From Tubulanus polymorphus (lineage: Eukaryota; Nemertea; Palaeonemertea; Tubulaniformes; Tubulanidae): 64,000 bases of DNA. The stretch spans positions 22,015,210 through 22,079,209 of the forward strand of contig NC_134030.1 of assembly GCF_964204645.1 (NCBI RefSeq), in the 5' to 3' direction. How positions within the stretch are numbered: position 1 is the stretch's first letter; the number at the start of each line of letters is the position of its first letter. The translations under genes and the position numbers were made by a program. Below, piece after piece: positions 14,001 through 39,240 of the stretch. Below the pieces are notes generated by a model. It had not been told where the DNA came from, did no database searches, and saw only the letters and a list, made by a program, of their open reading frames with translations.

Positions 14001-17000
14001 AGTTACCCATTGACTCAACAAGTTACATGTGACCCTCCAGCTGTCGTTCAAAAACTATCAAACTATCAGTGGAATATAACGATACCTATCGTAAATAGTA
14101 CCACAACTGACTATAGAGGGCAGTGTTTGGCTGACGGTATTAATGAAAGGGACATTAATGTCACTGGTTATCATCACGCCGGTCCAACTGATGAACCAGG
14201 TAAGATTCCGGGTCACAACTGGGTAAAATGATTTAATTCCATTGAAACATGATAAAACTCGAGTCCATCATCTCTTAACTCGAAATCATTTCTACACAAT
14301 CAAACAATTTACTTATGAAAGTCGTTATTTTGATAAATTGTCACAAAATAACCTATTAATATATTTCATAGTCTCAATTTACTAAGTCGTACTGGAGTTG
14401 TCTCTATCATTGGGTCTCATTTTACTAGGTGTAAGTCGTCATTCATTTGAGTCGTCACAATTCGTATTCGAATCAGCCACCAGTATTTTACCTAACCTGT
14501 AACTCAATTAGATTAGTCAGTACAGCGGATGAGTCTTATGGGAAATCCGTGCGCGATGACGTAATTCTCTGTGTCGTCCGAACTGAATGTATTTTTTGTG
14601 AATATATCACATTCAAATATTTCGTTATGATTTAGCATCTTTAACTTTCTATCTTGAGGCTGCTTGACCCAATCAAGGAACAATTAATTTTCTCCCATTT
14701 CAAAAACAACTTATTTACTTCATTTAGAGACAATTTGAGCTTTGAAAGTTAAGAAGCAGTTACTTTTTGCTTGACCTATTTAATTATTCAATTCAATTGC
14801 TGTTGTTTTTATCAATAGTTACAATGGAACTATTTCTAGCTTTATATAATTCTATTCAATCGCATCACTGATTTGTTTAAATTTCAGTTCCAGAAGAAGG
14901 GACTGGGGGAATAGTGTTTGCTGTAATCAGTATACTGATATTACTGATTCTGATAATACTGTTTATACTGTGTCTTTGTGGTTGCTGTAAGTTTTACATA
15001 AAACCATCATTTAATCTGAAAAACTATGATAAACAAACTGCAGAATCAGAATACTGTGTTATTTCTCATTGACAGTGCGGTGCAGAAAACCTGATGATGA
15101 ACTGTGTAGATGTGGAAATTGTAAGTTATGTAATAATTCAAATAAAGAATGCTAGAAATTGAAAATAGTGCATAAGGCCGAATGTATTCTAGAGCCCTAA
15201 GATAACCAGATACAGTTGATCCTCAATTATCTGTCCACATTTTTAATCTCGGGACCCTAGTTGCGCAGTATCATTCAAAAAGTGTTCGTAAACTATTAAT
15301 CTGGTCTTAAGTTGTTAGTTCGGCTTCAAAACTAAAACTGTTTTCCCCTGACAAAACCGGTCTTTGCAGTGGCAGATAACTGAGAGTTCATGAGGTCTGA
15401 AATCAGTCACACTTCTAGATTATGCTTAAAATTGCATACATGGGCTTAAAGAAACAACACAATTTTGTGTGCTTGCGTTTGACAAAAGATGATGATTCAA
15501 AAAATGATTGTATTGTTTTTGTTTTTGTTTTCAGCACTGAATTTCAATAGTATAAGCCGTGAACTAATGATTTGTAATTGTCGCACCGAGGACTCGTCGG
15601 ACGATGAACTATGTGTTTGTTGTTGCTGTAAGTGTCATAGAAAAATACCATCGTAGAATCGTAGAAAGGATTATCGCAAATTAGAATAATTTGTTTGTTT
15701 GTTTTTAGTGACTTGCAAATTACCTGCTGCCGATGAACCTGATAATGAGGATGATTCCTCAGATGAACTGTGTCATTGTTGCTGCTGTGAGTTCTATATA
15801 TAAACTGATAAAGATTAATAGTCAGTAACTGTAGAATAAACGGTTGTATTATTTTCTATTTGCAGTGGTGTTGAGAAGGGAGCCGTGTACATGTAATTAC
15901 TGTAAGTTTTATTAACATTGAAAACATTGATGATTAATCCTGCAAAATTAACTGTTATCGTCATTGGATATTCACGAATTCAAGAATGTTTGGAACTTAG
16001 TAGAACAGAATGTTATCATTTCTGGGATTCAGCGCGGGTTGGGTCGTAGTTTCAGATGGCTGCAAACATGAAATGTTGCTACGACCAAACATTCACCGGT
16101 TCATTAAAAATCATTTTGATAGAAACCGCCGCCATAGGTTTTCTTAGCCTCCAGGAGAAGCTACTATGTAACATCGTTCTCTTCACAAATCCATTTTATA
16201 ATGTTTAGCATCATTCAACTTTCAATCAATTTTCTAGACACAATACGCGCATTATTCAGACCAGAATTTAGGTGTACGAGACGCATTAAAAATCTAAAGC
16301 CAGAATATGCATAACGTTTATTTATTTTCGTCTGACATCGATCACTTTCAGATCTGAATCAGTGCGGTCTAAATAAACCGTCATTTTTATATCTATTGCA
16401 CAATGCAGCATTAATCAAATTATATAATGGCTAATCAGTAGCGAATGAATTACTCGTAGATGCAGTGTCTTGGGTACAGTCTCGATACAAGTCACTGCGG
16501 GGTCACAAATCAACGTTGATAGGTTAAGATTACTTGTCGACGTAGGTTCTCCATTTTTCTCGTTGGGAAGTATCGTTACGTTGTTGGGTGACGATAGTAA
16601 TAAATTATCACATATGCCCACCGGGTATCGGTAATGAAAACTTGCGTCCGGTGCCTTGTCCCAGTTACTATTTATTGCAAACTAGTAGAAATTCCGTAAA
16701 TCCGTGATTCCGAAATAGTACCGGTTTAAACTCGAGAAAGTTACGCAGTATCATTGGTTCAATTATCTCATAGCATTAGTATCCATGACTATCTTTAGTG
16801 GGTGGCTCCAACAATATCCAAATCACACTGTTTCTTTATTGGGTTGATTTGTAAGGTGAACGTGCATCATGTAAACAAACAGTATTTCTGTTTTCTAATT
16901 TACAGTCACGTGTTTGCGTCCGAGACCTGAAGATGTGATTGAATTGTTGCTTTGGACAAGTGAAACCTGGTATGAAAAAGGTAAGATTCTCTCACATGAT

Positions 17001-39240: not shown

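What the first reader, a model, noticed from the sequence alone, without database searches (positions are those of the whole stretch)
15076..38332. A membrane receptor tail cut into 63 phase-locked micro-exons
Seen: 63 consecutive exons of 18-156 nt, each a multiple of three with phase-1 introns on both sides, downstream of an Ig/membrane receptor. Known: schistosome micro-exon genes use strings of tiny symmetric exons for protein variation, but those encode secreted proteins. Inferred: an Ig receptor that can vary its intracellular tail by exon skipping or by gain and loss of exons, a design I do not know from other receptors.
Basis: partly seen in the sequence, partly recalled or inferred. 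Interest (0 to 1): 0.92.

Follow-up and report, generated by a model that had tools for sequence, protein, structure and literature searches.

The report
Ig receptor with micro-exon NLR linker
An invertebrate carries a tandem family of receptor genes of the immune type whose predicted inner tail is stitched from dozens of tiny exons that all share one reading phase, and in some family members those exons lead up to an NLR-type (NACHT) domain, so tail length can change between genes without breaking the protein.

Summary
Between 15076 and 38332 about 63 small exons, phase 1 on both sides, follow a gene with four Ig-like exons and a membrane exon; together they splice to an open 1660-aa frame. 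Candidate 1-1 exons number 56, against 5.3 in shuffles and 3 on the other strand. Aligned with nine paralogs, 339 distinct target exons show no stop codon, while 156 of 554 open intron windows gain one. The exons are therefore coding.

This is one of 25 closely matching Ig loci, 12 of them in one array. The tail has a fixed order of exon types; a 15-exon block occurs 0 to 3 times per gene. Outlying paralogs on C9 and C6 carry many of the same micro-exons between the membrane exon and one terminal exon of 957 or 905 aa with NACHT. No NACHT was found in the window branch.

Best reading: a membrane-bound Ig-NLR receptor family with a frame-neutral exon-built linker that expanded, and in one branch stands without the NLR. 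Exon gain and loss between genes is shown; exon skipping is untested, as no transcripts were held.

The parts
10958..11045 (+). W1 exon 1: ATG and signal-peptide-like stretch (by eye), ends in phase 1
11273..11557 (+). W1 Ig exon 1 (phase 1-1)
   Evidence: Pfam Ig_2 in the ectodomain, E 2.5e-7
12069..12401 (+). W1 Ig-like exon 2 (phase 1-1)
   Evidence: domain assignment by likeness, no Pfam match of its own over cut-off in the table
13180..13515 (+). W1 Ig exon 3; query for the paralogs (41 DNA matches, 67 protein matches in own genome)
13930..14199 (+). W1 Ig-like exon 4 (phase 1-1)
   Evidence: domain assignment by likeness
14888..14986 (+). W1 membrane-span exon (hydrophobic stretch by eye)
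15076..15901 (+). Tail exons C1-C4, Cys-rich, next to the membrane; called in U1, U6, W1 and, with a changed C4, W2; C2-C4 not called in U2-U5
16906..22293 (+). Tail exons N1-N20; all but N3 and N20 recognised by eye in C9 and/or C6 minus, the NACHT-bearing paralogs
22370..28735 (+). R block copy 1 (exons R1-R15)
28975..35375 (+). R block copy 2 (R2 twice, R4 weak); in the tree it groups with U4 copy 2 and the single R of U3
35855..35872 (+). 18-nt exon candidate, aligned in one of nine genes only; doubtful
36096..38332 (+). Tail exons E1-E8
39026..39240 (+). W1 last exon, Ser/Asp-rich, with stop; stands where NACHT stands in outlying paralogs
49792..63600 (+). Second paralog W2: four Ig exons, membrane exon 53475-53573, C1-C3 and a changed C4, N1-N2 twice, N3-N11, then E1-E8 (no N12-N20 and no R block called); first exon not sought, last exon lies beyond the window

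Best explanation
W1 is one member of a tandemly duplicated family of type I membrane receptor genes with four Ig-like exons outside and a long cytoplasmic region encoded by phase-1 micro-exons (shown at sequence level). The original plan was most likely Ig x4 - membrane span - micro-exon linker - NACHT/LRR, as still seen on C9 and on C6 minus strand; in the window branch the linker grew by tandem duplication of exon blocks and the gene ends in a short Ser-rich exon without NACHT (inferred from paralogs; direction not tested). Because the introns are phase 1, blocks can be added or lost without shifting the frame; this is how tail length changes between genes (differences shown between paralogs). 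I think most micro-exons are spliced constitutively and that the tail is a long, charged spacer or scaffold that sets reach and multivalency of the receptor, with NACHT-bearing members as the signalling partners (inferred). The likely role is surface immune recognition or uptake, as for the sea cucumber Ig-NACHT receptor (inferred).
For: Phase-1 chain against chance. Open spliced frame of 1660 aa. No stops in 405 paralog alignments, or 339 counted once per target, with sites kept. One order of exon types in the eight genes typed. On the same strand N1 follows the Ig exon, the first one at 1.6-4.9 kb, in 17 of 25 Ig loci; NACHT follows in 6 of 25 within 55 kb, 5 of them within 17 kb; R11-R13 copies run from 0 to 3. 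C9 and C6-minus loci read Ig exons - hydrophobic membrane stretch - micro-exons - terminal exon that begins at a phase-1 acceptor; NACHT Pfam E 1.3e-15 for the C9 exon, NLRC4 chains in PDB E 5e-5. No NACHT in the main cluster by family or protein search; tblastn of two NACHT exons against the window and 200 kb upstream gives nothing below E 0.97.
Against: No RNA evidence: the joining of Ig, micro-exons and NACHT in one transcript rests on phase, order and conservation. dN/dS of membrane, C, N and E exons is 0.51-1.66 over 28 pairs of near paralogs and 0.81-1.15 in three pairs with the outliers, so residues are barely constrained, which does not support a specific signalling function of the tail. 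No Pfam match over cut-off for the tail (best for the C9 linker FerA, E 0.081) and one weak PDB match, COP9 subunit 7b, E 0.0099. NACHT could have been gained by outliers. Only 6 of 25 Ig loci have NACHT downstream, one of these (C19) 53 kb away; 12 of the 18 full-length NACHT exons of this family are not downstream of any of the 25 Ig exons. The D1 locus has Ig, C exons and NACHT but no N or R exon found. Helical or spacer nature of the tail was not tested.
Confidence: 0.6

Rival explanations
1. Combinatorial tail: single genes produce many tail isoforms by skipping symmetric micro-exons, a cytoplasmic counterpart of Dscam or MEG variation.
For: The tail exons are symmetric and phase 1; 37127/37145 and the N3 and R2 donors offer in-frame alternatives; residues change freely while the frame is kept.
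Against: Nothing in the DNA requires skipping; sites are kept in nearly all exons. Exon types are in fixed order and neighbours are not sister copies.
Confidence: 0.2
2. The tail is a separate gene, or decaying coding sequence, downstream of a short-tailed Ig receptor.
For: No transcripts seen; dN/dS near 1; C1 has lost its acceptor in U3-U5.
Against: No stops and few frame changes in the exon comparisons against many in intron windows; the model reads on in phase from membrane exon into the tail; N1 follows the Ig exon in 17 of 25 loci.
Confidence: 0.07
3. Ordinary intron-rich receptor whose micro-exons reflect an old multi-exon repeat, with no consequence for variation.
For: Modest repeat signal: N11-N14 and R8-R11 align in exon register (hhalign E 4.7e-4, probability only 32%, one of 45 pairs); a 36/39-18-48..54 nt length motif stands at 3 of 3 18-nt exons of a list without the second R copy and the doubtful exon (permutation p 9e-5, pattern seen before it was tested).
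Against: Block number differs between paralogs, 0 to 3, and W2 misses a whole run of exons in frame. A unit HMM found no further copies above shuffled tails.
Confidence: 0.13

Closest known systems
AjNLRC4 of the sea cucumber Apostichopus japonicus (PMC8699970; abstract and passages seen)
   Same: Ig domains outside, membrane span, NACHT inside; surface receptor for bacteria with uptake through actin
   Different: Described there with two membrane spans and without LRR; the passages seen mention no micro-exon linker. The window gene itself has no NACHT found; outlying paralogs do, with an LRR match below Pfam's cut-off.
Schistosome micro-exon genes, MEG (PMC10526429; abstract and passages seen)
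   Same: Strings of very short exons, mostly multiples of three, with long introns
   Different: MEG proteins are secreted and their genes have 10-20 very short exons; here about 63 exons form the predicted tail of a membrane receptor and keep their order across a tandem family
Dscam of arthropods (PMC6851185, PMC4835542: search listing with start of abstract only)
   Same: Ig receptor with potential splice diversity
   Different: Dscam varies by choosing one of many sister exons (recalled); here neighbouring tail exons are different types in fixed order, and repeats come as whole blocks
Symmetric repeat-exon arrays of titin, collagen and elastin (recalled, no call)
   Same: Many same-phase exons allow length change without frame shift
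   Different: Structural proteins, not receptor tails

Membership tests
Ig-TM-NACHT receptor (AjNLRC4 type) | Ig domains outside | tested here: met
   Pfam Ig_2 E 2.5e-7, over cut-off, two stretches; signal peptide by eye only
Ig-TM-NACHT receptor (AjNLRC4 type) | Membrane span | tested here: met
   Hydrophobic exon 14888-14986, and hydrophobic stretches in C9 and C6 minus; by eye, no predictor run
Ig-TM-NACHT receptor (AjNLRC4 type) | Cytoplasmic NACHT in the window gene | tested here: not met
   No NACHT match at E 0.001 in 21.68-22.14 Mb of C6; tblastn on window and 200 kb upstream, nothing below E 0.97
Ig-TM-NACHT receptor (AjNLRC4 type) | Cytoplasmic NACHT in outlying paralogs C9 and C6 minus | tested here: met
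   Terminal exon at a phase-1 acceptor after Ig, membrane and micro-exons; both places match NACHT over cut-off, E 1.3e-15 for the C9 exon; joint transcript not tested
NLR | LRR after NACHT | tested here: inconclusive
   LRR_14 E 0.0019, below its cut-off, on the C9 exon
Schistosome MEG | Very short exons, mostly multiples of three | tested here: met
   63 exons, median 48 nt, all multiples of three by construction of the chain; other phase classes at chance level
Schistosome MEG | Secreted protein | tested here: not met
   Membrane exon precedes the micro-exons
Schistosome MEG | Alternative splicing of central exons | not testable with these tools
   No transcripts held
Dscam-type cluster | Arrays of sister exons used one at a time | tested here: not met
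   Neighbouring exons are different types in fixed order; usage not tested

The most novel reading that the evidence does not exclude
A membrane receptor family in which the distance and binding surface between an Ig sensor and an NLR module is written in dozens of frame-neutral micro-exons, so that genes, alleles and splice forms give a large set of inner tails to similar ectodomains: diversity on the inside of the cell instead of the outside.
Probability: 0.15. Interest if true: 0.9.

Novelty: new variant of a known kind. Interest (0 to 1): 0.65.

Why it matters
Membrane receptors that join an Ig sensor to a NACHT module seem rare in print (one found in three searches). Here an animal that is probably a protostome (one match to the bantam microRNA family just over its cut-off; that bantam marks protostomes is recalled) has a family in which some members have Ig, linker and NACHT and others Ig and linker only. 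The micro-exon linker makes the evolution of domain distance directly readable: each block gained or lost is a clean, frame-neutral event that can be compared between genes and individuals. It would also show that micro-exon strings are not limited to secreted parasite proteins.

Tried and rejected
Pfam and PDB searches of the spliced tail: no family over cut-off; one weak PDB match, COP9 subunit 7b, E 0.0099, not used. Profile comparison of ten tail blocks, 45 pairs: apart from pairs that share an exon by construction, the best is N11-N14 against R8-R11 in exon register (E 4.7e-4, probability 32%); R8-R12 against E1-E3 (0.0019), R5-R8 against N7-N11 (0.0029, a short stretch where both blocks end in R8/N11), E1-E3 against R5-R8 (0.0095) and R5-R8 against E4-E8 (0.013) are weaker. 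A unit HMM found no further copies above shuffled tails. Structure prediction was not used: the tool admits only proteins read letter for letter from the DNA, and the tail is spliced. Papers on micro-exon receptors: five searches listed no such receptor tail; two listed nothing at all. On Ig-NACHT three, of which one search gave the sea cucumber receptor. PMC9646362 (pearl oyster, passages seen) reports NACHT and Ig gene expansions; the passages shown describe no fusion.

Full report
What was checked. The window is C6:22015210-22079209 (+) of an unnamed 267.8 Mb genome in 77 contigs. I built an exon chain from the sequence alone: phase 1-1 candidates number 56 in 14800-39300, against 3-11 for each other phase class, 3 for class 1-1 on the minus strand, and 5.3 on average (highest 11) in 20 shuffles. 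A chain with weights trained on this gene gives 56 exons against 0-4 in 20 shuffles. With homology to a reference list from W1 itself, 63 internal tail exons stand between membrane exon and last exon; the spliced frame is open for 1660 aa, from 10958 to 39240, with the longer forms of N19 and R2. The median tail exon is 48 nt; introns from membrane exon to last exon run from 76 to 2601 nt, median 223.

Are the exons coding? I aligned 63 W1 tail exons with nine other genes (U1-U6 upstream, W2 in the window, C9, C6 minus), taking the best local match that covers the exon. Of 405 such alignments the acceptor AG is kept in 400 and the donor GT in 396, none has a stop, and 7 change length out of frame. 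Both R copies of W1 can fall on one target, so I counted each target place once: 339, with AG in 334, GT in 336, out of frame 4, stop 0. The 7 fall in C1, N3 and R2: C1 has lost its acceptor in U3-U5, and the chain finds in-frame forms of N3 and R2 with another donor. For 744 intron windows of the same lengths, 286 change length out of frame, and of 554 that are open in W1, 156 gain a stop; substitution levels are 8.4% in exons and 9.1% in windows. Intron composition may make stops likelier, and windows overlap, but the difference is very large. Against strong constraint on residues: dN/dS is 0.51-1.66 over 28 pairs of near paralogs, for membrane, C, N and E exons, and 0.81, 0.87 and 1.15 for the pairs C9/C6 minus, C9/W1 and C6 minus/W1; the third Ig exon has 0.38 (W1/C9), 0.82 (W1/C6 minus) and 0.47 (C9/C6 minus), and NACHT C9/C6 minus has 0.71. 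The frame is guarded, the letters much less so.

Family architecture. The third Ig exon has 41 matches by DNA and 67 by protein. For pairing I took 25 of the 41 DNA matches, those of 82% identity or more, leaving out one 59-base piece on C19 beside a match already taken. Within 55 kb downstream on the same strand and before the next such Ig exon, N1 is found in 17 of 25, NACHT in 6 of 25, and R11-R13 occurs 0 to 3 times. One locus, C6:22765937, counts two N1 and two R places, the second about 30 kb on, probably a further gene. The C19 locus has R and NACHT only at 49 and 53 kb, so its unity is uncertain. The exon types keep one order, TM C1-C4 N1-N20 R1-R15 E1-E8 END, in the eight genes typed; a few exons per gene stayed untyped, and U2's membrane exon was seen only by eye. 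W2 goes from N11 to E1 and has N1-N2 twice. U1 and U3 have one R block; U4, U5 and W1 two; U2 one and a part; U6 is cut by the end of the stretch held. In a tree of 11 R11-R13 stretches, W1 copy 2 groups with U4 copy 2 and the single R of U3 (99/100). This suggests a block duplication older than those gene splits and a later loss in U3, but exchange between genes would look alike; U5 copy 2 does not join this group, and six of eight inner forks are weak.

The NLR link. A D1 paralog at C6:18350276 has Ig exons, a membrane stretch and C exons, and then a terminal exon of 892 aa with P-loop and Walker B motifs seen by eye that counts among the NACHT matches; tblastn found C exons but no N or R exon there. 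The C9 stretch has four Ig exons, the C6-minus stretch three (its start is cut); both have a hydrophobic membrane stretch, then N exons (N3 and N20 not seen), R8-R14, and a terminal exon of 957 and 905 aa that begins at a phase-1 acceptor (exon names by eye). The C9 exon matches NACHT at E 1.3e-15, LRR_14 and NLRC4_HD2 only below their cut-offs, and NLRC4 chains in PDB at 5e-5. The genome holds 27 NACHT family matches and 34 matches to this NACHT protein, 18 of them full length at 71-100% identity and without stops. None lies in the main cluster, 21.68-22.14 Mb. Six of the 18 lie downstream of the 25 Ig exons; for the other 12 I did not look at what stands upstream. Two NACHT exons (17604661, 18091139) lie on the opposite strand about 14 kb beyond R exons.

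How it most likely works. Shown: coding micro-exons, one phase throughout, differences in block number between genes, and many of the same micro-exons between Ig and NACHT in two outliers. Inferred: one transcript; loss of NACHT in the main branch; a spacer or scaffold role; immune recognition. The last exon of W1 and the exon before NACHT in D1 share a short look (ENEPK), seen by eye and not tested; no such exon turned up before NACHT in C9 or C6 minus in that search. An internal repeat origin of the tail has modest support only.

Comparison with print. A sea cucumber receptor with Ig outside and NACHT inside, AjNLRC4, is published and mediates uptake of Vibrio (PMC8699970, abstract and passages). 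MEG genes of schistosomes share exon shape but are secreted (PMC10526429, abstract and passages). Searches for a micro-exon receptor tail listed none; the library holds open-licence papers only, so this is weak evidence of novelty.

Scores. Interest 0.65: a real, unusual gene design with a clean evolutionary readout, tied to a receptor kind that seems rare in print, but without RNA evidence and with a precedent for Ig-NACHT.

Noticed in passing
window about 4772-8129 and about 42509-45364: A second receptor gene alternates with the micro-exon genes: one Ig-like exon (5410-5730), a membrane span (about 7290-7370 by eye) and a tail exon with repeated Tyr motifs (PYMDM, SYIDM, PYVNI). Ten such Ig exons, 53-56% identical to the W1 exon in protein, lie in the main cluster. 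No Pfam match for the Ig exon or the tail.
   Followed up: partly
window 11101-11329 and 49686-49838: 82-bp tandem repeats that copy the acceptor and first codons of the first Ig exon; copy number differs between paralogs.
   Followed up: no
window 13638-13837 and 51754-52414: 51/52-bp minisatellite in the intron between Ig exons 3 and 4, about 4 against 13 copies in the two genes.
   Followed up: no
window 26734-28116: 154-bp tandem repeat, 9 copies, in the intron between R14 and R15; looks palindromic by eye.
   Followed up: no
G000:C6:20428665-20571432 and C9:4200968-5074313: Further clusters of related Ig exons at 44-72% protein identity.
   Followed up: no
G000:C6:17590215/17604661 and 18076801/18091139: R exons on + with a NACHT exon on - about 14 kb downstream, twice with nearly the same spacing.
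   Followed up: no
G000:C6:17526341, 17770212, 18172937, 22305268; C12:8725865: NACHT copies with stop codons, apparently decayed.
   Followed up: no
L031 4940-6394 minus: 484-aa open frame that looks like a Penelope-type reverse transcriptase (recalled, not searched).
   Followed up: no
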